A stretch of DNA of 12,471 nucleotides from a bacterium. GTDB taxonomy: Bacteria > CAIWAD01. Under the pieces are notes generated by a model. It made no database searches. It saw nothing but the letters and a program-made list of their open reading frames with translations, and had not been told where the DNA came from. Location of the stretch: positions 1 through 12,471 of the forward strand of contig JAUIFJ010000057.1 of the NCBI GenBank assembly GCA_030429345.1. Reading direction: 5' to 3'. Made by a program: the position numbers and the translations under genes. Positions 1-12,471 of the stretch are shown here, in pieces. The number at the start of each line of letters is the position of its first letter. The first letter of the stretch is position 1.

Positions 1-178
1 GGTGCCAGGGACGGTGCCAGGGACGGTGCCAGGCACGGTGCCAGGCACGGTGCCAGGCACGGTGCCAGGGACGGTGCCAGGCACGGTGCCAGGCACGGTG
101 CCAGGGACGGTGCCAGGGACGGTGCCAGGGACGGTGCCAGGGACGGTGCCAGGGACGGTGCCAGGGACGGTGCCAGGT
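1..178. repeat. 12-bp tandem repeat array, left end
   Basis: Fourteen complete head-to-tail copies of a 12-bp unit fill positions 1-168, followed by a partial copy to about 178. The array probably continues beyond the left edge. Only two unit types occur: GGTGCCAGGGAC (9 copies) and GGTGCCAGGCAC (5 copies, units 3, 4, 5, 7 and 8). They differ at one base. The second type contains the inverted repeat GTGCC-A-GGCAC, so arms from different units can pair. There are no spacers, so this is not a CRISPR array. The unit length is a multiple of three, so open frames encoding Val-Pro-Gly-Thr repeats arise on both strands; I regard these as artefacts. A related but more degenerate array lies at the right end of the window in the same orientation. 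Confidence 0.97.
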
Positions 179-184
179 GCAAAG

Positions 185-350
185 TGAAGCTGCAGAAGGC
201 CAACAGCTTGAGTACTAGTTGCTGCAGAATTACTTGCTGTACCAATGAACCGATTCCCTGGACTATGACCTGGAACCGGTGATCCCCTTTGGCGGGCTAC
301 AATTTCGGCTACGGCTTTGATTTGTAATACAAAGCATCCTGGCCCCATAC
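185..350. other. non-coding stretch, no gene recognised
   Basis: Between the left repeat array and the rplI terminator I see no credible reading frame, tRNA or mobile-element end. Two small structures are visible: a direct repeat GCTGCAGAA at 189-197 and 221-229, and a short inverted repeat TTTGT-AAT-ACAAA at 321-333. Neither has an obvious function. This stretch looks less GC-rich than the genes beside it. Confidence 0.6.
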
Positions 351-384
351 GAAAACGACCCGCGCCTTCCGGCGCGGGTCGTTC
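351..384 (-). terminator. Rho-independent terminator after rplI
   Basis: Positions 354-366 pair perfectly with 371-383, giving a 13-bp GC-rich stem closed by a 4-base loop. On the minus strand the loop reads GGAA, a GNRA-type tetraloop. The stem is followed in the minus direction by TTTT (complement of 352-355). It lies 46 bases beyond the rplI stop codon and fits the end of the rpsF-rpsR-rplI transcript. The T-tract is short, but the stem is exceptionally stable. The + direction lacks a comparable T-run. Confidence 0.88.
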
Positions 385-429
385 GTTGTATACATGTATT
401 GCCGTGCGCCATGTCGGCGCGGCCGACCC

Positions 430-1017
430 CTACGATTCCTCCGTGGCCTCGTCGGTTTCGGTCTCCTCGCCTTCCTCGCCTTCGGCGTTCTCGGCTTCGG
501 CGGCGGCGCGTTCGGCTTCCTCGGCGGCCTCGGCGGCGGCGATCTCGGCCTCGATGGCGGCCTTGACTTCTGCTTCCTGGTCCTTCACGTGGAGCTTGAC
601 CACGGCGTGCAGGCCGCCATAGAGGCGAATGTGCACTTCGTGATCACCCAGGGTCTTGATCGGCTTCTCGAGCACGATGTCACGACGGGGAAACTCGACC
701 CCGGTGGCGCTGACCAGGGCGTGAATGTCGTGAGTCGTCACGCTGCCGTATAGGCGGCCTTCGCTGCCGACCTTGACATGCGCCGTGTACTCGTGGGCTT
801 CCAGGCGGGCCTTCAGCGTTTCCGCCTTGCCCTTTTCGCGGTCGGCGCGAGCCAGCAGCTGGCGCTTCTCGTCTTCGAACTTCTTCAGGCTGCCGGCGTC
901 GGCCAAGTAGGCCAGGCCCTGGGGCAGCAGGTAGTTGCGGGCATAGCCGGGCTTGACCTTGACGACCTCCCCGACCTTGCCCAGCTTCTCGATCTCGCTT
1001 CGCAGAATGACTTGCAT
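430..1017 (-). CDS. rplI: 50S ribosomal protein L9
   Basis: This 195-residue protein is L9 of the large ribosomal subunit, which binds 23S rRNA near the base of the L1 stalk and helps maintain reading frame. The N-terminal domain is unmistakable: MQVILRSEIEKLGKVGEVV followed by the conserved KPGYARNYLLPQGLA region (residues 22-37). A charged connecting helix (about 45-75) and the C-terminal domain (about 76-147) follow. The ATG at 1017 is chosen over an upstream in-frame ATG because it begins the conserved sequence and is preceded by a perfect TAAGGAG ribosome binding site. From about residue 148 there is an extra ~48-residue Ala/Glu-rich acidic tail; typical L9 ends near 148-150. It is the last gene of the rpsF-rpsR-rplI unit, 10 bases after rpsR. 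Confidence 0.97.
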   Translation of the reverse strand: MQVILRSEIEKLGKVGEVVKVKPGYARNYLLPQGLAYLADAGSLKKFEDEKRQLLARADREKGKAETLKARLEAHEYTAHVKVGSEGRLYGSVTTHDIHALVSATGVEFPRRDIVLEKPIKTLGDHEVHIRLYGGLHAVVKLHVKDQEAEVKAAIEAEIAAAEAAEEAERAAAEAENAEGEEGEETETDEATEES

Positions 1018-1023
1018 GGGAAG

Positions 1024-1030
1024 CTCCTTA
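1024..1030 (-). promoter_or_regulatory. rplI ribosome binding site containing the rpsR stop
   Basis: In the minus strand the sequence reads TAAGGAGCTTCCCATG. The TAA stop codon of rpsR is the first three bases of a perfect TAAGGAG Shine-Dalgarno sequence, six bases before the rplI ATG. This fixes the rplI start. It also places a terminating ribosome directly on the next initiation site, consistent with translational coupling. Confidence 0.85.
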
Positions 1031-1261
1031 GCTCGGGTTGTCGGACACGTAGGGCAGCAGGGCCAGATGACGCGCGCGCTTGATCGCCTTGGCCAGCATG
1101 CGCTGGTAGCGGGTGCTGGTGCCGCTGACACGACGGGGAATGATCTTCCCGCTTTCGGTCAGGAAACGCGCCAGACGCTTCTCGTCCATGTAGTCGATGT
1201 ACTTGACGCCGGATTCCTTGAATCGGCAAATACGCTTCTTGTAGGAATAGCTCTTCGCCAT
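1028..1261 (-). CDS. rpsR: 30S ribosomal protein S18
   Basis: This 77-residue basic protein is S18 of the small ribosomal subunit platform, where it forms a heterodimer with S6 on 16S rRNA. The family core is clear: the KRICRF segment near the N terminus, '[28 protein letters not shown]' in the middle (about 22-49), and '[21 protein letters not shown]' near the end (about 51-71). The length is normal. It begins 3 bases after the rpsF stop codon. Its Shine-Dalgarno sequence GGAGG (complement of 1270-1274) lies inside the last codons of rpsF, so the two are probably coupled. In many bacteria ssb lies between rpsF and rpsR; here it is absent. A single Cys (residue 12) sits in the N-terminal segment. 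Confidence 0.98.
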
Positions 1262-1264
1262 GAT

Positions 1265-1711
1265 CTAGGCCTCCGTGCTCTGCTTTTCTTCGTGATGACG
1301 CCGTCCGCCGCCACCGCCTCCGCGGGTGCCGCGTCCTCCGCCGCCGGGGCGGGTACTGGCATTGCGCTGCTCCATCTCCTTCTTGTAGATCTCCTGGGTG
1401 ATCTGCTTGAACTTGATGTCGCGCTCGGTCATGAAGACCACCAGATGGCGGAAAATGTCCTCGCTCAGGGCGAACCAGCGCTTGAGGGGGGCCACGGCCT
1501 CGCCGGGAAGCTTGACTTCGGTATAGACATAGTAGCCGTACTGGCGCTTGCCGATGGCATAGGCCAGACGCTTCTTGCCCATCCGTTCCGTGCGGTCGAC
1601 GCTGCCCCCGTGGCTCTGGATGAGCTCGGTGAAGCCGCCGACCACCTTGTTGATCTTGTCCTCATCATAGCTGGGCTCGATGATGAAGGTGATCTCGTAA
1701 TTCTTCAGCAT
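1265..1711 (-). CDS. rpsF: 30S ribosomal protein S6
   Basis: This 148-residue protein is S6, the small-subunit platform protein that pairs with S18. The ferredoxin-like core spans residues 1-100: [13 protein letters not shown] at the start, '[20 protein letters not shown]' (about 44-63) and '[12 protein letters not shown]' (about 82-93). The ATG at 1711 is preferred over an in-frame ATG 108 bases upstream. It starts the conserved sequence and has an AAGGAG ribosome binding site (complement of 1717-1722) at good distance. The tail from about residue 115 is unusual: a Gly/Arg-rich run ([16 protein letters not shown]) followed by [10 protein letters not shown]. Some S6 proteins carry modifiable tails (RimK glutamylation in E. 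coli), but no such modification can be read from sequence. First gene of the S6-S18-L9 unit. Confidence 0.97.
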
Positions 1712-1716
1712 TGCTG

Positions 1717-1722
1717 CTCCTT
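1717..1722 (-). promoter_or_regulatory. rpsF ribosome binding site
   Basis: The minus strand reads AAGGAG, five bases before the rpsF ATG at 1711. It decides the start codon: the longer in-frame ATG at 1819 lies inside the hppA terminator hairpin and has no such site. Confidence 0.8.
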
Positions 1723-1732
1723 CTGGTCGTTG

Positions 1733-1782
1733 CCCGACGCTCCGAACGCCGGGAAGAAGCCTGTCCCGGACCTTCCAGGACA
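1733..1782 (-). promoter_or_regulatory. possible structured rpsF leader (two hairpins)
   Basis: The 5' region of rpsF can fold into two hairpins. Positions 1762-1766 pair with 1778-1782, and after one mismatch 1768-1770 pair with 1774-1776. Positions 1733-1739 pair with 1747-1753, including one G-U pair that exists only in the minus-strand RNA, with a 7-base loop UUCGGAG. S6-S18 operons in many bacteria carry a leader RNA bound by the S6:S18 complex, usually with an unpaired CCG. I cannot match that consensus with certainty here, so this is only a candidate autoregulatory leader. No convincing -35/-10 pair is visible between the hppA terminator and rpsF. Confidence 0.3.
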
Positions 1783-1790
1783 AGACGCGG

Positions 1791-1831
1791 AAAATAGCAA
1801 GGGCCCCTGGATTATCCAAAGGGCCCTTGCT
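1791..1831 (-). terminator. probable Rho-independent terminator after hppA
   Basis: Positions 1796-1806 (AGCAAGGGCCC) pair perfectly with 1821-1831, an 11-bp stem. The intervening loop contains a further 4-bp helix TGGA/TCCA (1808-1811 with 1815-1818). On the minus strand the stem is followed by ATTTTCC (complement of 1789-1795). It lies 30 bases past the hppA stop. The interrupted T-run suggests it may be leaky, which could let the upstream operon feed rpsF. Confidence 0.75.
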
Positions 1832-1861
1832 GCAGGATTCAGGATCGCTGCCTGGTCGCCG

Positions 1862-3916
<2,055 letters not shown>

Positions 3917-3926
3917 GCGATCCTCG

Positions 3927-4547
3927 CTATTTGTTGCGTCGATTGGTTGCGTCTTCGTCCGCGTCGGCCTTGCCGGAGGCCTGGCGGTTGCAGCGGTTCA
4001 TGGCCGCCGTCATGCCTTCCCTGTAGAAGACCTCCAGGCCTTCCGCGGCGCGTTCCAGCATGTGCTGCACTTCATCCAGCGCGGCCGTGGGAATCGGCGC
4101 CAGCACCAGCCTCTTCCAGGAGGAGGACGAGATCTCGACCGGAGGCCGGAATCCCAGGCGCAGGCGCTGCAGCTTGCGCGTCCCCAGGACCTGCAGGATG
4201 TGATTCATGCCGTTGTGGTTGCCGCCGCTGCCTTCGCGACGGAAGCGGATCTCGCCCAGCGGCAGATCCATGTCGTCAAAGGCCAGCAGCAGATCCCCGG
4301 TTTCCAGCTTGTAGAACTGGCGCGCTTCCTGGACCGCCTGGCCACTCAGGTTCATGTAGGTGGTGGGTTTGACCAGCAACAGGTCTTCCCCACCCAGGTG
4401 GACACGACATTCCAGAAAGCTGCCGCGACCGCTGCGGAACTCGGCGCCGGCTCTGGAAGCCAGAAGATCCAGCAACAGAAATCCCAGGTTGTGCCACGTG
4501 TTACGGTAGCGCACCCCGGGATTTCCCAACCCGCAGAGCAGCTTCAT
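3927..4547 (-). CDS. pth: Peptidyl-tRNA hydrolase
   Basis: This 206-residue cytoplasmic enzyme cleaves peptidyl-tRNAs released from stalled ribosomes, freeing tRNA for reuse. Catalytic elements are visible: GLGNPG with Asn9, the catalytic His19 in 'TWHNLGF', Asn66 in 'TYMNLSG', Asp91 in 'FDDMDLPLG', and Asn112 in 'GGNHNG'. The last motif reads GSGGNHNG where most relatives have GSAGGHNG; the key His and Asn are kept. The C terminus (about 180-206) is a hydrophilic tail rich in Asp/Arg/Asn/Lys. The ATG at 4547 begins exactly at the family start and has GAGG about 9 bases upstream. It follows rplY by 43 bases and precedes hppA by 10, an operon position. Adjacent rplY/ctc and pth are a widely conserved pair. 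Confidence 0.97.
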
Positions 4548-4590
4548 GCTCAGCGCCTCGTCCAGGGCCGGCGGGCCACGGACAGTTCCA

Positions 4591-5160
4591 TCAGCTGGAA
4601 GCGGCGGTAGCGGCGCGCGGCTTGGTCACCTGGATCACGGCCACGTGGTCCGGCACCAGCAGCTTGTAGTTCTCGTTGACCGGCAGATCGCGCACGAGCA
4701 TGGTCTGCGAGGCTTCCAGCTGGGCGACTTCCACTTCGATGAAGCGCGGCAGATGCTCGGGCTTGACGGAAATGGTGGCCTTGTGCAGCAGGCGTCGGAC
4801 CTGGCCGCCCTGGCGGATGCCGATGGGGCTGCCGTTGAACTGGATCGGCAGGGTGACGCGGATCGTCTTGCCCGCTTCCAGTCCCTGGAAGTCGATGTGC
4901 GTGACCTCTCCGGTGACCGGGTGGCGCTGGACTTCGCGGATCAGGCAGTTCTCGTAGGTCTTGCCGTCCAGCTCCAGGCTCACCACGCGGTGGTGCTCCT
5001 TGAGGGCGTTGCCGAATTCCTTGGCATTGACCTGCAGGCTGAGGGGCTCCTCGGAACCCTTGTAGTAGACGGCGGGAATGTTCTCGCTGACGCGCACGCG
5101 ACGGGAGGCGTTGGTGCCGGTCGCTTCGCGCGGGCTGGCTTTCAGAGTGACGCTCGACAT
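4591..5160 (-). CDS. rplY: 50S ribosomal protein L25 / general stress protein Ctc
   Basis: This 189-residue protein is the two-domain (CTC) form of L25, which binds 5S rRNA. The N-terminal L25 domain (about 4-92) shows 'ATGTNASRRVRVSENIPAVYYKG' and the VTHIDFQ segment (86-92). The C-terminal TL5/CTC beta domain (about 95-180) shows the RVTLPIQFNGSPIGIRQGG stretch and 'LEASQTMLVRDLPVNENYKLL'. It lacks the long acidic tail that many CTC proteins carry, ending in PRAATAASS. The ATG at 5160 has AGGT about 9 bases upstream. It starts 32 bases after the prs stop, and pth follows after a 43-base gap containing a modest hairpin (4560-4583). The prs-rplY/ctc-pth order matches many bacteria, including Bacillus. 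Confidence 0.96.
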   Translation of the reverse strand: MSSVTLKASPREATGTNASRRVRVSENIPAVYYKGSEEPLSLQVNAKEFGNALKEHHRVVSLELDGKTYENCLIREVQRHPVTGEVTHIDFQGLEAGKTIRVTLPIQFNGSPIGIRQGGQVRRLLHKATISVKPEHLPRFIEVEVAQLEASQTMLVRDLPVNENYKLLVPDHVAVIQVTKPRAATAASS

Positions 5161-5192
5161 GAGAATCGCACCTATCGTTTGAATTTTCGTTG

Positions 5193-6125
5193 CTAGCTGA
5201 ACAGGGAGCTGATGCTGCGCTCGTCGTGGATCATCTTCACCGCGCGGGCGAAGATGTCAGCGACGCTGAGCACCGTCAGCTTCTCCTGCAGAAAACGCTC
5301 CCGATTCGGGATGGTGTCTGTCACCACCAGGTTCGAAATGGGGGCATTCTCCAGTCGTTCAATGGCCTGTCCGCTGAAAAGGGCGTGGGTGCAGGCGCAG
5401 ATCACGCTGCGGGCACCCAGCTCCTTGGCCGCGGTGGCGCTCTGGGTCAGAGTGCCGGCCGTATCGATCATGTCATCAATGATGACCACGTTGCGATCCT
5501 TGACCTCGCCGATCAGGTTCATCACCTCGGCGGCGTTCGGTCGCGGCCGGCGCTTGTCGATGATCGCCAGCTCGGCGCCCAGCTTCTTGGCGTAGGCGCG
5601 CGCCATCTTGACCGAACCGATGTCCGGGGCCAGCACGGCGCAGCGTTCAAGCTGCATCGACTGCAGATGCGGCATCAGCACGGCGCTGCCGTACAGATGG
5701 TCGAAGGGGATGTTGAAGAACCCCTGGATCTGCGCCGCGTGCAGGTCCATCGTCAGAATCCGGCTGGCGCCTGCCGCCGTCAGCAGGTCGGCGACCAGCT
5801 TGGCGCCGATGGCGACGCGCGGCTGGTCCTTGCGGTCCTGCCGGGCGTAGCCGAAATAGGGCATCACGCAGGTGATGCGTTTGGCCGACGCGCGCTTGGC
5901 GGCATCCAGGATCAGCAGGAGCTGCATCAGGTTGTCCGCCGGCGGCAGCGTCGAGAGGACGACGAAAACGTCCTTGCCGCGAATATTTTCCTCGAACTTG
6001 GCGTAGAGTTCGCCGTCCGAGAATCGCCCCAGGTCGAGCAAGCCGACCGTCGTGTTCAGGCAGTCTGCGATCCGTTCCGCCAGATCGCGGGAACTGTCAC
6101 CGGCAAATATGCGCAGTTGATCCAT
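5193..6125 (-). CDS. prs: Ribose-phosphate pyrophosphokinase (PRPP synthase)
   Basis: This 310-residue class I PRPP synthase transfers pyrophosphate from ATP to ribose 5-phosphate. PRPP then feeds purine, pyrimidine, His, Trp and NAD synthesis in the cytoplasm. Motifs in order: GRFSDGE (33-39), 'MPYFGYARQDRK' with the ATP-binding Arg/Gln/Asp (88-99), His129 in MDLHAAQIQGFF, the catalytic flexible-loop KRRPRPN (191-197), and the PRPP loop VVIIDDMIDTAGT (213-225). Length and all key residues are normal. The ATG at 6125 is preceded by AGGACC, a short-spaced ribosome binding site. The 104-base gap from spoVG contains a strong hairpin that may attenuate transcription into prs; rplY follows after 32 bases. 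Confidence 0.97.
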   Translation of the reverse strand: MDQLRIFAGDSSRDLAERIADCLNTTVGLLDLGRFSDGELYAKFEENIRGKDVFVVLSTLPPADNLMQLLLILDAAKRASAKRITCVMPYFGYARQDRKDQPRVAIGAKLVADLLTAAGASRILTMDLHAAQIQGFFNIPFDHLYGSAVLMPHLQSMQLERCAVLAPDIGSVKMARAYAKKLGAELAIIDKRRPRPNAAEVMNLIGEVKDRNVVIIDDMIDTAGTLTQSATAAKELGARSVICACTHALFSGQAIERLENAPISNLVVTDTIPNRERFLQEKLTVLSVADIFARAVKMIHDERSISSLFS

Positions 6126-6150
6126 GGTCCTGCTGTTGCTGGTTGCATCC

Positions 6151-6189
6151 AGAGAAACAGACAGGATGGCCCGTGAGCCACCCTGCCTG
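6151..6189 (-). terminator. hairpin with T-tract between spoVG and prs
   Basis: Positions 6158-6170 pair with 6177-6189 over 13 bp around a 6-base loop. Two of the pairs are G-U and form only in minus-strand RNA; on the + strand those positions would be A-C mismatches. The stem is followed in the minus direction by TTTCTCT (complement of 6151-6157). It lies 41 bases past the spoVG stop and 32 before the prs start. It could be a weak terminator or attenuator that lowers prs expression relative to ispE-spoVG, or an mRNA processing or stability element. Confidence 0.55.
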
Positions 6190-6229
6190 GGTTTGGTTCG
6201 ATGGAAGTGCCTCGTTGAATGCCGGGAAC

Positions 6230-6514
6230 TCAGGCGCCGTGCAGCTCCACTCCGTTGCCGGCGGAAACCAGCCTGTCATAGGCTTGCAACACCTGCTCCT
6301 CGATCCGCGAGCGGAACTCGTTGCAGATCGGGTGGGCGATGTCCTTGTGGGTGCCGTCTTCCAACTTGCGACTCGGCATGCAGACGAACAATCCGCGGTT
6401 TCCCAGGATGACCTTCAGACCCCGGATCACGAAGACCTCGTCAAAGGTAATGTTGACGAAGGCCTTCAGCTTGTCCTCGTAGCGCGGTGTCACATTGATC
6501 TCGGTGATCCTCAC
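6230..6514 (-). CDS. spoVG: SpoVG family nucleic-acid-binding regulator
   Basis: This 94-residue protein belongs to the SpoVG family, small DNA/RNA-binding regulators first found in sporulating Bacillus but widespread in non-sporulating bacteria. The family body is clear: 'ITEINVTPRYEDKLKAFVNITFD', then FVIRGLKVILGNRGLFVCMPSRK, then 'DGTHKDIAHPI', and a C-terminal helix ('RIEEQVLQAYDRL'). I start it at the GTG at 6514 rather than the ATG at 6562. GTG begins the family homology, and GAGGAG (complement of 6521-6526) sits 6 bases before it. That GTG overlaps the ispE TGA stop as GTGA, so the two are translationally coupled. ispE and spoVG are neighbours in Bacillus and other phyla too. Its targets here are unknown. 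Confidence 0.93.
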   Translation of the reverse strand: MRITEINVTPRYEDKLKAFVNITFDEVFVIRGLKVILGNRGLFVCMPSRKLEDGTHKDIAHPICNEFRSRIEEQVLQAYDRLVSAGNGVELHGA

Positions 6515-7395
6515 GAAGCACTCCTCGAAGCCATCTGTCCGCCCATCGGGCAGGGTCGACACAGATGAGTCCTGGGATAGCGGGAGCCGAGAGTTTCTGC
6601 CGCTGCACGAGCCTGTCGGTCAGTGTCAAAGATTCCGAAAACGGTCGAACCGCTTCCGGACAACGAGGCATGGATCGCACCAAGCGAGGAGAACTCCTGC
6701 TTGAGCTCACGCAAAACCGGCAGTTCCTCGAAGAGGGCCCATTCGAACTGGTTCTCGGGCCATGTCTTCGGATCACTGCCTGGCTTGACGAATCCGTCGA
6801 AGCCTGCGAATGTAGCGTATCCACCATGCCTAGTCAAGACTTCACTCAGTCGTGCATAGGCCTGGCCCGTGGAGACTCCCACTCCGGGCCAAACAACAAC
6901 AATGGGGTTGTCGAAAATCGCTTCGATGGGCTGCAGCACTTCCCCGCGCCCGCTGACATGGCGCCAGCCGGATTCAAGGAAATAGGGCACATCGCTGCCC
7001 AGCTCCAGCGCCAGGCGGAAGAGGTCCTTCGGACCGAGGATGTCCGGATGGATGCGGTTCATGCCGCGCAGGCAGGCCGCGGCGTCACTGCTGCCTCCGC
7101 CGAGACCCGCGGCGAAGGGAATCGTCTTCTCCAGGCGGATTTCCATGGTCTGCCGAGTCCCGGCAGCCTCGCGAAAGGCATCCCTGGCTTTCAGCACCAG
7201 GTTGTCCGCGCTTTCGAGTTCCGGAATCGTGCAGTGGAACGAATCCTGATCCGCGGAGGAGAATTTCAGACTGTCACAAAGGTCTACAGGAACGAACACG
7301 GACTCAAGTTCGTGGAAGCCGTCCGGCCGGCGGCCCGTGATGCGCAAGCCCAGATTGACCTTCGCACAGGCCTTTTCCTCGATCGATCCGAACAT
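6511..7395 (-). CDS. ispE: 4-(cytidine 5'-diphospho)-2-C-methyl-D-erythritol kinase
   Basis: This 294-residue GHMP-family kinase phosphorylates CDP-methylerythritol in the non-mevalonate (MEP) pathway to isoprenoids. Visible elements are 'AKVNLGL' with Lys12 and Asn14, the glycine-rich ATP loop PFAAGLGGGSSDAAA (93-107), the catalytic Asp135 in SDVPYFL, and the C-terminal GHMP motif 'SLSGSGSTVFGIF' (about 249-261). Length is normal. The ATG at 7395 gives the normal N terminus and has a modest GGAAG about 10 bases upstream. It is the first gene of the housekeeping cluster, and its stop overlaps the spoVG start by 4 bases. The upstream region holds a TTGACA hexamer and a palindrome that may control the whole operon. 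Confidence 0.96.
   Translation of the reverse strand: MFGSIEEKACAKVNLGLRITGRRPDGFHELESVFVPVDLCDSLKFSSADQDSFHCTIPELESADNLVLKARDAFREAAGTRQTMEIRLEKTIPFAAGLGGGSSDAAACLRGMNRIHPDILGPKDLFRLALELGSDVPYFLESGWRHVSGRGEVLQPIEAIFDNPIVVVWPGVGVSTGQAYARLSEVLTRHGGYATFAGFDGFVKPGSDPKTWPENQFEWALFEELPVLRELKQEFSSLGAIHASLSGSGSTVFGIFDTDRQARAAAETLGSRYPRTHLCRPCPMGGQMASRSAS
6521..6526 (-). promoter_or_regulatory. spoVG ribosome binding site inside ispE
   Basis: The minus strand reads GAGGAG followed by six bases and then GTG (6514-6512). The strength and spacing of this site are the main reason for choosing the GTG start of spoVG, which overlaps the ispE stop codon. Confidence 0.8.
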
Positions 7396-7413
7396 GGAGT
7401 TTGCTTCCGCCTC

Positions 7414-7423
7414 GTCAATTGAC
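7414..7423. promoter_or_regulatory. 10-bp perfect palindrome upstream of ispE
   Basis: GTCAATTGAC is a perfect palindrome 19 bases before the ispE start codon and downstream of the TTGACA hexamer. It would lie in the 5' UTR or near the start point and could be an operator. A single 10-bp palindrome may also arise by chance. Confidence 0.25.
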
Positions 7424-7459
7424 CTGTTTGCCGAACACCGAAACTAGGGAACCCTTTTC

Positions 7460-7465
7460 TGTCAA
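7460..7465 (-). promoter_or_regulatory. candidate -35 element for ispE operon
   Basis: The minus strand has a perfect sigma-70 type TTGACA hexamer (complement of 7460-7465), 65-70 bases before the ispE start. At 17 bases the matching -10 would be TTCGGT, a poor match to TATAAT, so the promoter is weak, activator-dependent or misassigned. It is the best candidate in the region. Confidence 0.3.
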
Positions 7466-7663
7466 CAAAGCTGAAGCAGAGAATATTGTGACAGACGACT
7501 CTTCAGTGGAATGACTAAGTGGAGAACCTCAGGAAAATGTCACTTGACCCGGATCACGAACGTCAGGAAAAGAGACCTGCCGGACGAACTCCCGCAGTGC
7601 AGGAAAAGGACTTCCGCCGGCAGACTGAAATCCGGTCATTGCTCCGACTCCTGGAGCGTGTAC

Positions 7664-7696
7664 AAAAAAGTGCCCCCCTGAAACCCAGGGGGGCAC
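7664..7696 (-). terminator. Rho-independent terminator after secreted repeat protein
   Basis: Positions 7670-7680 pair perfectly with 7686-7696, an 11-bp GC-rich stem with a 5-base loop. On the minus strand it is followed immediately by six T residues (complement of 7664-7669). It lies 24 bases after the stop codon of the large secreted-protein gene and separates that unit from the ispE operon. This is the most canonical terminator in the window. Confidence 0.95.
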
Positions 7697-7720
7697 CGAT
7701 GTCGTCTTGCCCTCGGCGGA

Positions 7721-10700
7721 CTACTTGATCAGCAGCATCCGCTTTTCGGCGCTGAAGCCGTCGGCGGTGCTCAGGCGGTAGAAGTAGATCCCGCTCGACA
7801 GGCCCAGGCCCTGCTCGTTGCGGCCGTCGAAACTCATGCGGTAGGTGCCGCTGGCCTGGCTCTCGTCGACCAGGGTGCGGACACGCTGGCCGGCCAGGTT
7901 GTATACCGCCAGCTCCACCTGTCCCGGACGAAGCAGCTGGTACTCAATGACCGTTTCCGGATTGAAGGGATTGGGGTAGTTCTGGCGCAGGGTGAAGGCC
8001 GCCGGACGGGTCTCCGCCACCGAACTGGTCGGCTGCGGCGTCACACGCGTCGTGTAGACATCCTTGATGTCCTCCTTGCCCGAGGCGCGCATGTCGATCC
8101 ATGACATGTAGACGCCGCCCATGCCGTCGTGGCTCAGGAAGGGCTCGCGCTGGTTGTGGAAGAACTCGAGCACGTTGCCGTCGTACTCGATGCCGTCGAT
8201 CACGCCGCTGGCCTGATTGACGTTGTTCTGCTGGACCCACAGGTCCTTGTAGCCGGTGGTGTCCTCGGTCTCCTCGGCTGCGAGAGCGACCACGAAACCG
8301 GACCAGCCGACCATGGGCACCATCACGCCGGCCACGTCTTCCTGGGTGCCGTCGTCGACGAAAAGCGAGCCGCTGGCGTCGTCCCAGACCAGGCTGCCGT
8401 CGCTGAGCACATGACGCTGGTAGACATCGTCGTTGTCGTTGTTGCTGAAGTCCGTGTAGACGACGTAGATGCCGTCGTAGCGGTCGTTGACGATCACGGC
8501 CGTTTTCTGGCTGCCGGCTCGCATGTCGACTTCCGTGCGCCACAGCTCGCTGCCGGAGGCGTTGATCGCGCGGGCGATCAGGTCCGAATTGGAGGCGTCG
8601 GCGGTCAGGTCCTCCCAGATGCCGATCACGCCCCCGCCCATGCGGGGAACGATGCTGGCCTTGCGCTGGATCCCGCCGGCGCCCGCGCCGAAGGGTACGC
8701 CGCCGGCATCGTAGGCGATATTGCCGGAGGCGTCCACGTGCTGGATCAGCACGTCCGTGTCCTGCCAGTCGCCGCTTTCCCAGACCGCGTAGACGCCGCC
8801 CTGTCCGTCGGAGGCCAGGTCGTTGAAGGTCTCGTGGATCGTGGCGGTCTCGGTCAGGCGCACGCCCTGGTCGCCCCAGAGGGCGTTGCCGCTGAAGTCG
8901 AAGGCCTGGGCGCTGACTTCGGCGAAGAAGAGGCTGTAGGTCGTGTCGACACCGGACCAGGCGAGCACCACCTGGTCGGCGCTGCGCTCCAGCTTCAGGT
9001 TCTGCATGTAATACAGGCCGCTGTTCTCGGGATCGAAGGCGGGCGTGACCGGCATCGACTCGCCCCAGACCATCTCGCCCTGGGAGTTGATGCGGGTCAG
9101 GAAGCCCTGCTGGGCGCCGTCGCTGCCGGCCTCGATGGCGACGAAGGCGCCGCCGGAGCCATCGGGCACCACGTCGTACTTGTGCTGTCCGCCGGAAAGG
9201 CTCAGGTCGACCGGAAGGCCGTTGGAGGCATGCGCCGGCTCGCCGGTCATGTCATCCAGGAACTGCATGTAGACATGGGGGCCGTCGGCGTTGCGGGGAT
9301 CGACCCAGAAGACCATCGTTCCCTCGTCGGTGGCCACGTTCTTGACGCGTGACACACTGCCGCTGATGCCCCAGGCGCTGGCGTCGCCGGCGCTTTCGAA
9401 GCTGACCTGTCCGTTGGAATCCAGGTGCTGGGTGAAGACGCCCAGGCTGCCGCGGCTCAGGTCGCCCCAGGCCACGAAGAGGCCGCCGTCCTGGTCCTCG
9501 CGCAGGGCGGGCTGGATGGCGTCGCTCTCGGTGTCGCTGTGATCCACGACCACCGCGCCCTGGGCTCCCCAGAGCAGTCCGCCCGAGCTGTTCAGCTTCT
9601 GTGCGCGAATATGGGCGTAGGTCTCGGTCATGTAGTCCTGCCAGACCAGGAAGGCGCCGCCGTTGCCGTCGCCCGTGACACGGGCCTGCTCCTGGTTGCC
9701 GGGGTTGTCGCAGGCCGTCACGCCGTACTCGCCCCAGACCTGCAGGTCGGTGGTGTTCATCTTCTGCACGAAGATGTCGGCCAGCGTGTTGCCCGGATCG
9801 TTGACGTTGGATTCGAACATCAGCAGCGTGTGACCGTCACCGGCGTAGGACACGCGGGGATTGTTCTCGTCCTTGCCCGGCTCGTCGGCCATGGCGACGC
9901 CGTCGGCGGCGAAAGTCGGAGTGAGGTCGGAGGAGTAGTGCTGCACGTAGATGTCGCCGGCATTGTCGCTGCGCTGGTCGACCCAGGCGATCCAGCAGCC
10001 GTCGTCCCCGTCCCAGGTGACCTTGGGGCTGTACTGGCGTCCGCTGGCGCCGACCACCAGCTGACCGTTGCCGCCGGCGCTCAGAGTGCCGTCGGGATGA
10101 ACATGCTCGATGTAGATGTTGTCGTCGGAGGCTTCGCGGCCGTCCAGCCAGGCGACGTAGGCGCCGCCGTTGCCGTCGTGTTCCATGGTCACGACGCGCT
10201 GGTCGCCGACTTCCGTGCAGATGCCGAGGCCGTTGAAGCCGAAGTCGGGATCGATCGTGCCGTCGGCAGCGATGCGCGTGATGTAGAGGTCCCAGTTGTT
10301 GCCGCGATTGTCGCCCCAGACGACGTAGGCGCCGCCGGTGCCGTCGATGCACATGGACTTGGACATGTTCTCCGTGCCGTTGGCGCACTCGTCGCAGATC
10401 TGCACGCCGTCCTCGCCCCAGGCCAGGCCGCCGCTGCCGCCATCGTCGATCAGGCGGTTCACATAGAGGTCGCCCGCCGCATCGCTGCGGAAATCGACCC
10501 AGCTGATGATTGCGCCGCCGGCAGCGTCCGTGATCAGCACCGGATCCTCCTGGCGGATCACATCGTCATTGACGATCAGGGCGTCGACCAGGCCGTGGGT
10601 TGCGTCATCGGTCTCCCAGACGGCAGGGCTGCCCGACTGGGAGGCGTCCAGCTTCTGCGCGAAAAGATCACGCATGCCGAAGCGCGTGTCGGACCAGCTG

Positions 10701-10870
10701 ATGATCAATTCGCCGTTGGCGCCGATCTCCGCCGAGCGCTGCCATTCGATGTGATAGCCCTGGCGCACCAGGGTGGCGTTGTTGTCGTCCCCCCAGGGCA
10801 GGTAGGGATCGTCGGCCAGCACGGTCGTGACACAACCGGCCAGCAGACAAAGGGTCAGGGAAGCTCGCAT
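7721..10870 (-). CDS. large secreted repeat protein with FlgD-like C-terminal sorting domain
   Basis: I do not recognise a specific function for this 1049-residue extracytoplasmic protein. The N terminus is a signal peptide with a good signal-peptidase I site at Ala19 (VLA|DD); an LAGC sequence at 10-13 also resembles a lipobox but leaves a very short signal. From about residue 45 to 945 there are roughly fifteen degenerate 50-60-residue repeats. Their core is Gly-Gly-(Ala)-Tyr/Phe-Val-x-Trp-x-Asp-x-Arg, then Asp-Ile/Leu-Tyr and a short strand, often ending in Gly-x-x-x-Trp-Gly, as expected for beta-rich propeller-like blades. Residues 964-1049 form a C-terminal FlgD-like Ig/type IX-style domain: NYPNPFNPET, 'VYNLAGQRVRTL', GIYFYRL, ending KRMLLIK. 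Such domains anchor or sort proteins in FCB-group bacteria. It starts 54 bases after the lipoprotein gene with GGGAG upstream of the ATG, so the two are probably co-transcribed, and a terminator follows. Confidence 0.88.
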   Translation of the reverse strand: MRASLTLCLLAGCVTTVLADDPYLPWGDDNNATLVRQGYHIEWQRSAEIGANGELIISWSDTRFGMRDLFAQKLDASQSGSPAVWETDDATHGLVDALIVNDDVIRQEDPVLITDAAGGAIISWVDFRSDAAGDLYVNRLIDDGGSGGLAWGEDGVQICDECANGTENMSKSMCIDGTGGAYVVWGDNRGNNWDLYITRIAADGTIDPDFGFNGLGICTEVGDQRVVTMEHDGNGGAYVAWLDGREASDDNIYIEHVHPDGTLSAGGNGQLVVGASGRQYSPKVTWDGDDGCWIAWVDQRSDNAGDIYVQHYSSDLTPTFAADGVAMADEPGKDENNPRVSYAGDGHTLLMFESNVNDPGNTLADIFVQKMNTTDLQVWGEYGVTACDNPGNQEQARVTGDGNGGAFLVWQDYMTETYAHIRAQKLNSSGGLLWGAQGAVVVDHSDTESDAIQPALREDQDGGLFVAWGDLSRGSLGVFTQHLDSNGQVSFESAGDASAWGISGSVSRVKNVATDEGTMVFWVDPRNADGPHVYMQFLDDMTGEPAHASNGLPVDLSLSGGQHKYDVVPDGSGGAFVAIEAGSDGAQQGFLTRINSQGEMVWGESMPVTPAFDPENSGLYYMQNLKLERSADQVVLAWSGVDTTYSLFFAEVSAQAFDFSGNALWGDQGVRLTETATIHETFNDLASDGQGGVYAVWESGDWQDTDVLIQHVDASGNIAYDAGGVPFGAGAGGIQRKASIVPRMGGGVIGIWEDLTADASNSDLIARAINASGSELWRTEVDMRAGSQKTAVIVNDRYDGIYVVYTDFSNNDNDDVYQRHVLSDGSLVWDDASGSLFVDDGTQEDVAGVMVPMVGWSGFVVALAAEETEDTTGYKDLWVQQNNVNQASGVIDGIEYDGNVLEFFHNQREPFLSHDGMGGVYMSWIDMRASGKEDIKDVYTTRVTPQPTSSVAETRPAAFTLRQNYPNPFNPETVIEYQLLRPGQVELAVYNLAGQRVRTLVDESQASGTYRMSFDGRNEQGLGLSSGIYFYRLSTADGFSAEKRMLLIK

Positions 10871-10924
10871 GAAATTCTATTCTCCCGTTTGATTGAATTG
10901 CATCACAGGGCCGCGCCGTCGAGG

Positions 10925-12001
10925 TCAGCGCAGCGGATTGTCCAGAATCAGCAGGCCGTCGTCCCGGTCCGCCACGTAGACCCGATCGCCGTCCACCCGC
11001 AGGCGCCGCGCGTAGCGGCTTTCCCGCTGGTAGCTCAGCCGCGGATGGCGGGGATCGGAAAGGTTGTAGACCAACAGTCCCTTGCTGCTGTTGGCCAGGA
11101 AAGCGTGCTCGTCGACGACCTCCACATCCAGGCTCGTGCCGCCCGGGCTTTCGACAGAACGCAAGTAGGGGCGGCTGGGATCCGCGACATCGATCACGGC
11201 GAAGCCGTTCCCGCCCATGGCAACGACCAGCAGATCCTCTTCCAGGGAAAGACGCAGTGCGTCTCCGGGAAGGCCCAGCTGGGCGATCACGGACAGATCG
11301 GCCAGCACCGGGTCGCCGTTGAAGCGCAGGACGGTCAGGCCATAGCGGCCATTGGCCAGAAAAAGCAGATCGTCCCTCAGGACCAGGTCGTTGCCGTCGT
11401 TGCTGAAGGAATTGAAGGAGAACCGGTAGCCCGCCGGCGGATTGCTGCCGTCGTAGAACCAACGGCCGGCCTGGTCCGGATGTTCTTCCGTATCCAGGTC
11501 GCTGAACTTGCGCACGACGATGCCGTCGCTGCGGTCGCAGTAGACCATGTAGGTATAGCCGCTGGCAGCGTCATGGTAGCCGTCTTCCTGGTTGACGCCG
11601 GAAGCGAAAATCGGCCGCAGGAAGCGCGGCTGGAAGGGATCGGCCACGTTGAAGACCAGCAGATTGGTCTGCAACTTGAGCATCAGCAGGCTGTCGGCGA
11701 GCAGGAAGCTGGAAATGAAGCTGTTGTCGCCCGGGGCATACAGACTGTCGTCGGAGGTGTAGCTGCCGACCGGCTGAGGAGAGCCTTCCTCGTCGCGATT
11801 GAAAACCCGAAAACCGCGGCCCTCGTTGCTGGCTACGAAAAAGTAGTCCTCGCCGAGGCTCAGGTCCGCCACGTCGTTGTTGACGGAGAACCAGGCGCCA
11901 ACCTGGTCGATACCGCCGTCAATCGTATCCTGCCTTTCGGCGCAGGAAGCCGCAAACAGGAGCGGCAGCAGCGCTGCCAGCAGGGTCTTGCTTCTCTTCA
12001 C
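10925..12001 (-). CDS. LVIVD-repeat beta-propeller lipoprotein
   Basis: This 358-residue protein is predicted to be exported and lipid-anchored. It begins at a GTG with GGAG just upstream, then MKRSK, a hydrophobic stretch, and AASC with Cys20 as the probable lipidated residue (a slightly non-canonical lipobox, Ala at -3). The rest resembles LVIVD-repeat propellers: each blade ends in a strand of the type GFAVIDVADPSRP. Examples are LLVFNVADPFQP (about 114-125), GFAVIDVADPSRP (266-278), GLLVYNLSDPRHP (308-320) and 'VYVADRDDGLLILD' (341-354). Three Asp-Pro turns follow the same pattern, and several more divergent blades precede them. The function is unknown; propellers of this kind usually bind ligands or partners. 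It is the first gene of a two-gene unit with the 1049-residue secreted protein, which suggests a shared surface role. Confidence 0.85.
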   Translation of the reverse strand: MKRSKTLLAALLPLLFAASCAERQDTIDGGIDQVGAWFSVNNDVADLSLGEDYFFVASNEGRGFRVFNRDEEGSPQPVGSYTSDDSLYAPGDNSFISSFLLADSLLMLKLQTNLLVFNVADPFQPRFLRPIFASGVNQEDGYHDAASGYTYMVYCDRSDGIVVRKFSDLDTEEHPDQAGRWFYDGSNPPAGYRFSFNSFSNDGNDLVLRDDLLFLANGRYGLTVLRFNGDPVLADLSVIAQLGLPGDALRLSLEEDLLVVAMGGNGFAVIDVADPSRPYLRSVESPGGTSLDVEVVDEHAFLANSSKGLLVYNLSDPRHPRLSYQRESRYARRLRVDGDRVYVADRDDGLLILDNPLR

Positions 12002-12046
12002 GATTCTCCGATCCCTTCAGCCATCCGGGCTGTGCCGTGTCCATCC

Positions 12047-12078
12047 TTCCAGTGAGTAGCCCGGGCCAATCACTGGAA
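12047..12078. promoter_or_regulatory. 32-bp dyad upstream of the lipoprotein gene
   Basis: TTCCAGTGA (12047-12055) is the exact inverse of 12070-12078. The central GCCCGGGC (12059-12066) is itself a palindrome with the same centre. Only the few bases between these blocks are imperfect. The dyad lies 46-77 bases before the GTG start, just inside the transcript predicted from the promoter candidate. It lacks a T-tract on either side, so it is not an obvious terminator. It could be an operator or a 5'-end mRNA hairpin. Confidence 0.5.
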
Positions 12079-12088
12079 AACCCGGCAT

Positions 12089-12116
12089 GTTATCAATTCA
12101 ACTGCTGTACCGTAAA
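12089..12116 (-). promoter_or_regulatory. weak promoter candidate for lipoprotein unit
   Basis: On the minus strand TTTACG (complement of 12111-12116) and GATAAC (complement of 12089-12094) are 16 bases apart, resembling a weak sigma-70 promoter. It would start transcription near 12082, right before the 32-bp dyad. The match is modest and other promoters are possible. Confidence 0.3.
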
Positions 12117-12307
12117 TGGGTGGGGTTGTTGAAGGCAACGCTAGGGCAAAAATCGCTCCAACTTGGCGGGAAGGGCCGCGCCTAAACCCAGACATTGAAA
12201 TTTAAGGTGTTAGTGGACTCAACGCTCCACAGGCACCCCGTTCCGGGATTAACAGCCGGAAGAGCCGATTCCCGATCGTATCGGATTCTTGCCAGACTTT
12301 CGAAGGC
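12117..12307. other. non-coding stretch between promoter and right repeat array
   Basis: I see no credible gene. A minus-strand open frame crosses into the repeat array but is largely repeat-encoded. A short inverted repeat CCGAT-CGT-ATCGG occurs at 12272-12284. No transposase, tRNA or attachment-site signature is visible. Confidence 0.5.
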
Positions 12308-12471
12308 CGTGCCAGGGACGGTGCCAGGGACGGTGCCACGCACGGTGCCAAGGACGGTGCCAGGGACAGTGCCAGGGACAGTGCCAGGGACGGTGCCAGG
12401 GACCGTGCCAAGGACGGTGCCAGGGACGGTGCCACGCACGGTGCCAGGGACGGTGCCAGGGACGGTGCCAG
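12308..12471. repeat. 12-bp tandem repeat array, right end
   Basis: Thirteen complete 12-bp units plus 8 bases run to the window edge, with the same consensus (GGTGCCAGGGAC) and orientation as the array at position 1. This copy is more degenerate. Variants include GGTGCCACGCAC (12332 and 12428), GGTGCCAAGGAC (12344), CGTGCCAAGGAC (12404), and units beginning AGTGCC (12368 and 12380) or CGTGCC (12308). No spacers separate the units. The array starts abruptly after the sequence TTTCGAAGGC. Its true length is unknown because it is cut by the window end. Confidence 0.96.

What the first reader, a model, noticed from the sequence alone, without database searches (positions are those of the whole stretch)
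1..12471. Two arrays of the same 12-bp unit bracket an otherwise ordinary gene block
The left edge (1-178) and right edge (12308-12471) both hold head-to-tail arrays with the same 12-bp consensus in the same orientation, about 12.1 kb apart. This suggests a dispersed minisatellite family in this genome rather than a one-off expansion. Direct-orientation copies could also recombine to delete or duplicate the whole ispE-rplI block. Quasi-palindromic GTGCC/GGCAC elements recall REP-type sequences that tyrosine transposases of the RAYT family mobilise, but no such gene is in the window.
Basis: partly seen in the sequence, partly recalled or inferred. Interest (0 to 1): 0.6.

Follow-up and report, generated by a model that had tools for sequence, protein, structure and literature searches.

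The report
Transposase-linked dispersed 12-bp tandem repeat arrays
The 12-letter repeats at both edges of this window are two of at least 29 tandem arrays scattered between genes across this bacterium's genome, and they look like an unusually short, tandemly stacked version of the small mobile repeats (REPs) that grow up around a captured transposase gene.

Summary
The window is a whole 12,471-bp contig (C67) of a 4.24-Mb, 92-contig genome, and both its ends break inside arrays. The unit GTGCCANGSACN forms 44 array pieces (730 aligned units, 3-35 per piece), at least 29 loci, in both orientations, almost all between genes. 28 of the 184 contig ends lie in them. Nine unit positions are nearly fixed (0.7% deviation) and three vary (23%). 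The same variants recur genome-wide, which fits a within-genome replicator better than 29 independent slippage events. The genome holds ten Y1-transposase genes. One intact REP-associated tyrosine transposase (RAYT; NF047646 above cut-off) sits about 120 bp downstream of an array. A sister-genus genome has a different, 11-bp GGTGCC array family, and one of its arrays starts at the stop codon of a RAYT-like gene. An Anaerolineaceae MAG carries over 60 match positions of GTGCCAGGYAC dimers, several clustered around its only RAYT homolog. Recombination of the two window arrays is untested. Mobilisation by the RAYT is inferred, not shown. Verdict: new variant of a known kind (RAYT/REP system).

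The parts
1..178 (+). Left 12-bp array, 14 full units plus a partial unit; truncated by the contig start; right boundary at ...GTGCCAGG|TGCAAAG
12309..12471 (+). Right 12-bp array, 13 full units plus a partial unit; truncated by the contig end; left boundary ...GAAGGC|C|GTGCC
179..429 (.). Intergenic stretch between the left array and the 3' end of rplI
430..12001 (-). Ordinary gene block between the arrays, all on the - strand: rplI, rpsR, rpsF, H+-pyrophosphatase, pth, L25, prs, spoVG, ispE-type GHMP kinase, FlgD-Ig/Por-tail secreted protein, LVIVD-repeat protein; no transposase
12002..12308 (.). Intergenic stretch upstream of the LVIVD-repeat gene and before the right array

Best explanation
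The arrays belong to a within-genome population of very short REP-like repeats: an 11-bp quasi-palindromic core GTGCC-A-NGSAC plus a 1-nt spacer. These were most likely spread, and perhaps stacked head to tail, by a REP-associated tyrosine (HUH/Y1) transposase, whose likely gene is C59:13658-14317, about 120 bp from one array. Shown: dispersal, intergenic location, nine near-fixed and three variable unit positions, the same variants in most arrays, a sharp register at the 5' boundary (pyrimidine, then G|GTGCC) with a ragged 3' boundary, and RAYT adjacency here and in a sister genus. Inferred: that the RAYT recognises the GGTGCC core as single-stranded DNA and inserts it 3' of a short YG-like target without target duplication, as IS200/IS605 enzymes do. 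Because each unit again ends in YG (...ACG|GTGCC), reinsertion at the edge of an existing copy would build tandem arrays, and slippage and unequal crossing-over then change unit number.
For: Genome-wide dispersal: 617 two-unit matches and 44 pieces with 730 aligned units. 42 of 44 lie outside called genes, with roughly 80% of the sampled DNA coding. Fifteen internal arrays have unrelated sequence on both sides. Unit positions 7, 9 and 12 deviate in 23% of cells, the other nine in 0.7%. The main variants occur in 44, 36, 29 and 24 of the 44 pieces, and units are scarcely more alike within an array (0.235) than between arrays (0.206), so variants were shared across arrays rather than amplified locally. 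A7 and C9 almost never co-occur (1 of 730, about 30 expected), which suggests few mutational origins followed by copying. At the left boundary 22 of 30 arrays stop within 1-2 nt of the unit start; G at -1 in 25/30 and pyrimidine at -2 in 26/30 (p about 1e-8 and 3e-5); the right boundary is spread over 0-9 nt. RAYT gene L038/C59 with HFH and YIDLNPV motifs, NF047646 85 bits against a cut-off of 80, array just upstream. Sister genus G002: 165 matches of an 11-bp GGTGCCGGTGY family, one array at the stop codon of a RAYT-like gene. G061 (Anaerolineaceae): GTGCCAGGYAC dimers, a single RAYT homolog at C85:24329, with dimers at 24045, 24918, 25817 and 25991 on the same contig. In G060 and G063, GGTACC- or GTGCC-type units flank RAYTs.
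Against: Only one of the ten Y1 genes in the own genome is next to a 12-bp array. A simple gap model gives about 0.04-0.06 by chance for the three closest RAYTs and 0.18 for all ten, so the link in the own genome is weak on its own and rests on the parallels. The RAYT has an array only on one side in the assembly, because the contig ends in that array; classical RAYTs are flanked on both sides. The G002 RAYT-like protein scores below the NF047646 cut-off (47.9 against 80) and is only 26% identical to L038. Single-strand folding of the arrays is not consistent (z -5.8, -3.6, -2.6 and +2.0), so a conserved hairpin, the usual REP feature, is not shown. No strand bias was seen (18 of 40). No empty site could be examined.
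Confidence: 0.62

Rival explanations
1. Ordinary minisatellites: a short GTGCC-rich seed was scattered by duplication or recombination and each copy grew by replication slippage, with no transposase involved. The RAYT neighbour is a coincidence.
For: Head-to-tail arrays with exact 12-bp spacing are what slippage makes. Slight excess of identical neighbours at lag 1 (z 2.95). One pair of arrays (C20:25690-25857 and C87:7-126) shares an 84-bp flank at 93% identity and the order of 10 units while differing by 3 units at one end, so array length does change and arrays can be copied with flanking DNA.
Against: Slippage does not explain at least 29 unlinked sites with unrelated flanks, the 30-fold contrast between fixed and variable positions, the fixed 5' register, or the parallel array families next to RAYTs in G002 and the similar units around RAYTs in G060, G061 and G063.
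Confidence: 0.2
2. Functional binding-site arrays: the near-fixed positions GTGCCA-G-AC form a recognition site for a host DNA-binding or nucleoid protein, and the arrays are kept for chromosome organisation or regulation.
For: Strong position-specific constraint and near-dyad symmetry (pairs 1/11, 2/10 and 4/8 are among the most conserved positions).
Against: No preferred orientation relative to neighbouring genes or GC skew (18/40). The exact unit is absent from same-family genomes G001-G003 and other relatives, which is odd for a conserved chromosomal function. The transposase recognition site would give the same constraint.
Confidence: 0.12
3. The arrays are non-autonomous cargo of some other mobile element, and the tandem unit is only its inner part.
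For: In sister-genus G002 six arrays share a conserved 3' extension of roughly 40 to 110 bp that includes a GAGATCCCAGCTTTCGCTGGGATGACAG hairpin repeat.
Against: In the own genome no flank is shared apart from GTAG-type REPs and one duplicated pair, so the array itself is the repeated entity there.
Confidence: 0.06

Closest known systems
REP / REPIN / BIME repeats mobilised by RAYT (TnpA-REP) transposases (PMC2817692, PMC3116915, PMC3733652)
   Same: Short, extragenic, high copy, species-specific sequence, one family linked to one Y1/HUH transposase gene, quasi-palindromic unit, copies near the transposase gene, and occasional tandem REPIN arrays reported in P. fluorescens SBW25.
   Different: Unit of 11-12 bp instead of 20-40 bp; no GTAG or CGTC tag; weak palindromy in most copies; arranged as long head-to-tail arrays (up to 35 units or more) instead of inverted doublets; fixed 12-bp period with a 1-nt spacer.
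TIRtrons/TIRYTs, RAYT-like genes flanked by terminal inverted repeats sharing GGGGWSAS (PMC3733652)
   Same: Several homologs of the C59 transposase found here are flanked by ggggtcag- or GTGTC-type inverted repeats, so the protein belongs near this group.
   Different: At C59 the flank is a 12-bp tandem array, not a long terminal inverted repeat.
GTAG-1 REP arrays of Thauera sp. MZ1T (5-bp stems, found through a tandem-repeat database; PMC3733652)
   Same: REPs with very short stems, found as clustered arrays.
   Different: Thauera units carry the GTAG tag; the unit here does not.
Short tandemly repeated repetitive (STRR) sequences of heterocystous cyanobacteria (own knowledge; not examined here)
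   Same: Short-period tandem repeats dispersed between genes across one genome.
   Different: 7-bp units, no known transposase partner.

Membership tests
RAYT (REP-associated tyrosine transposase) - gene C59:13658-14317 | Match to the curated RAYT model above cut-off | tested here: met
   NF047646 85.0 bits, cut-off 80; Pfam Y1_Tnp 33.9 bits, cut-off 23
RAYT (REP-associated tyrosine transposase) - gene C59:13658-14317 | HUH motif and catalytic tyrosine intact | tested here: met
   NHFHLIA and AYIDLNPVRAG in an open frame of 220 aa; aligns weakly with E. coli TnpA-REP 4er8 at both motifs (E 0.1)
RAYT (REP-associated tyrosine transposase) - gene C59:13658-14317 | Flanked by two copies of its repeat in inverted orientation | tested here: inconclusive
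   Array on the upstream side only; none seen in the 330 bp downstream; the contig ends inside the upstream array
REP repeats | Extragenic, more than 100 copies per genome | tested here: met
   730 aligned units in 44 pieces, 42 outside called genes
REP repeats | 20-40 bp with palindromic stem | tested here: not met
   12-bp unit; perfect GTGCCAGGCAC core in a minority (G7 with C9 in 92 of 730); folding not consistent
REP repeats | GTAG or CGTC tag at one end | tested here: not met
   No GTAG in the unit; on the reverse strand the unit reads NGTCC.., with position 12 variable
REP repeats | Mobilised in trans by the partner RAYT | not testable with these tools
   Needs biochemistry or population sequencing
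CRISPR | Repeats separated by unique spacers | tested here: not met
   Uninterrupted 12-bp periodicity

The most novel reading that the evidence does not exclude
A transposase-repeat system in which the target site is contained in the repeat itself: an 11-bp 'mini-REP' that its RAYT inserts next to existing copies, so that mobile DNA grows as programmed tandem arrays. It would have arisen in parallel with different units in different lineages, and it would be a mechanism by which bacterial minisatellites are born.
Probability: 0.25. Interest if true: 0.75.

Novelty: new variant of a known kind. Interest (0 to 1): 0.5.

Why it matters
How REP families start and how bacterial minisatellites become dispersed are both poorly understood. 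Here a tandem-repeat family and a RAYT sit together, with parallel families of different unit sequence (12-bp GTGCCANGSACN, 11-bp GGTGCCGGTGY, dimeric GTGCCAGGYAC) near related RAYTs in other genomes. That gives a concrete, testable link between domesticated HUH transposases and minisatellite birth. In practical terms, arrays of this kind break short-read assemblies: 28 of 184 contig ends here.

Tried and rejected
Assembly artefact at two sites: rejected, because 15 internal arrays have unique flanks on both sides. Coding repeat (Val-Pro-Gly-Thr): rejected, because third codon positions 3 and 6 are fixed while a first position varies. CRISPR: no spacers. Known RNA or tRNA in the window: none. 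Methylation-driven variation at CCAGG: considered and dropped, because position 7 varies but the paired position 5 does not. Replication-strand bias as a sign of Y1 insertion: none seen (18/40). Array order shared between arrays as a sign of block spreading: no excess for words of 3-5 units; a small excess at 7-8 units, to which the duplicated pair C20/C87 contributes. Patescibacteria contig L109 as a mis-binned relative: no DNA match to the own genome.

Full report
OBSERVATION. The window is the whole of contig C67 of a 4,235,962-bp genome in 92 contigs, so both ends are assembly breaks inside arrays and the arrays may be longer. The gene block between them is ordinary and all on the minus strand: rplI, rpsR, rpsF, H+-PPase, pth, L25, prs, spoVG, an ispE-type kinase, a secreted protein with a Por/FlgD-Ig tail, and an LVIVD-repeat protein. 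There are no tRNAs or Rfam matches.

GENOME-WIDE PICTURE. A two-unit probe with up to 2 mismatches matches 356 times on the plus strand and 261 on the minus strand, against 0 and 4 for the reversed control. A BLAST with six units gave 138 overlapping matches. From fetched stretches I mapped 44 array pieces holding 730 aligned units. Fifteen are internal with flanks on both sides; 28 contig ends of 184 lie in arrays. Since each broken array gives two ends, the number of loci lies between about 29 and 43. Forty-two of 44 pieces fall outside genes called by a simple codon-usage gene finder, with about 80% of the sampled DNA coding; the two exceptions overlap frames left open at a contig edge. There is no preferred orientation to neighbouring genes and none to local GC skew (18 of 40). 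The unit with up to 2 mismatches per 24 bp is absent from 40 relatives, including three genomes of the same family.

UNIT ANATOMY. The unit is GTGCCANGSACN. Nine positions deviate in 0.7% of cells and positions 7, 9 and 12 in 23%. The core is a quasi-palindrome around A6 (GTGCC-A-GGCAC when 7=G and 9=C, 92 of 730 units). Variants are shared widely: the commonest four occur in 44, 36, 29 and 24 of 44 pieces. Two units of the same array are identical in 23.5% of pairs and units of different arrays in 20.6%. A7 with C9 is seen once where about 30 are expected. This looks like a population of sequences with few mutational origins that have been copied among sites. Local slippage is present but weak: a lag-1 excess (z 2.95), and one pair of arrays (C20 and C87) with the same 84-bp flank and 10 units in the same order but three units fewer next to the flank in one copy. 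The 5' boundary is sharp: 22 of 30 arrays lose similarity within 1-2 nt before GTGCC, with G at -1 in 25/30 and a pyrimidine at -2 in 26/30. The 3' boundary is ragged (0-9 nt into the next unit). At two sites the array is followed at once by an inverted unit (GTCCTTGGCAC at C9, GTCCCTGGCAC at C47).

TRANSPOSASE PARTNER. The genome has ten Y1_Tnp genes. Their flanks carry different repeats: for example the C55 gene is beside GTAGGGGTCGATCGCGATCGACCC, a GTAG-type REP with 70 matches in the genome on both strands together. The gene at C59:13658-14317 encodes an intact 220-aa protein with HFH and YIDLNPV motifs that passes the curated RAYT model (85 bits, cut-off 80), and a 12-bp array lies about 120 bp upstream of its start (C59:14439-14659). 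By a simple gap model this adjacency alone has a chance of about 0.04-0.06 for the three closest RAYTs and 0.18 for all ten Y1 genes, so it is not decisive by itself.

PARALLELS. Homologs of this protein were sought in relatives and their flanks read. In G002, of a sister genus, a RAYT-like gene (NF047646 47.9 bits, below cut-off) ends directly at an array of an 11-bp unit GGTGCCGGTGY. That unit has 165 two-unit matches in G002 and none in G000, G001, G003 or G004. Six of the eight G002 arrays read share a 3' extension. A scan of species-representative genomes for three tandem units gave nine loci. Among the genomes behind five of these, the RAYT query matched in four. In G061 (Anaerolineaceae) GTGCCAGG(T/C)AC units form direct and inverted dimers (62 forward and 49 reverse matches, many being the same palindromic site) and cluster on the contig of its only RAYT homolog, 284 bp before and 161 bp after the match. 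In G060 GGTACC-type units and in G063 GTGCC-type units, including the very element that brought G063 in, flank RAYTs. In G062 no matching unit was seen at its RAYTs. These genomes were selected by the repeat, not by the transposase.

MECHANISM. Most likely the arrays are the repeat partner of this RAYT. By analogy with IS200/IS605 enzymes (established knowledge) the protein would act on single strands, cut at the repeat and insert 3' of a short target without duplicating it. The fixed 5' register after a pyrimidine-G fits such targeting. Because every unit ends in ACG, the next insertion could land at the edge of the previous copy, giving head-to-tail growth. This last step is hypothesis. DNA folding does not support a conserved hairpin across arrays (z from -5.8 to +2.0).

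COMPARISON. REPs and REPINs are defined as 20-40-bp extragenic palindromes, mostly GTAG- or CGTC-tagged and often in inverted doublets, linked to RAYTs (PMC2817692, PMC3116915, PMC3733652). The present unit meets copy number, location and RAYT linkage, but not length, tag or strong palindromy, so I do not file it as a REP, only as working like one. The same literature reports tandem REPIN arrays in SBW25 and clustered short-stem REPs in Thauera, so tandem stacking of REP-type DNA has precedents. No paper found here describes 11-12-bp tandem arrays tied to RAYTs; the search covers only open-licence papers.

Recombination between the two window arrays is possible in principle but untested. With about 30 similar arrays in both orientations, the two at C67 are not special.

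Noticed in passing
G000 C8:51224, C71:75096, C79:19261 and 22866, C89:21892 and 22196: A second repeat family, the GTAG-type REP GTAGGGGTCGNTCGCGANCGACCC, lies within about 60 bp of five arrays; at C89 an array sits between two such REPs.
   Followed up: partly
G000 Y1_Tnp genes on C44, C52, C8, C9, C46, C75: Each of several other Y1 transposase genes is flanked by its own distinct palindromic or direct repeats (for example ctgcaggtgaaacctgcag at C8, cgcacgatcatcgtgcg at C9), suggesting many REP families in one genome.
   Followed up: no
L188-L195 (G002): Arrays of the 11-bp unit are followed by a conserved 3' extension of roughly 40 to 110 bp containing GAGATCCCAGCTTTCGCTGGGATGACAG, a separate hairpin repeat also seen elsewhere in that genome.
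   Followed up: partly
G000 C20:1-175: Contig start holds two arrays in opposite orientation head to head, either a real inverted junction or an assembly fold-back.
   Followed up: no
L184 and L178 (G063): RAYT genes in a gammaproteobacterial MAG are bracketed by long multi-copy cggtgccaggcagaacttccatgcc and gtgccacgcgcgccttccgtgcc repeats in inverted orientation.
   Followed up: no
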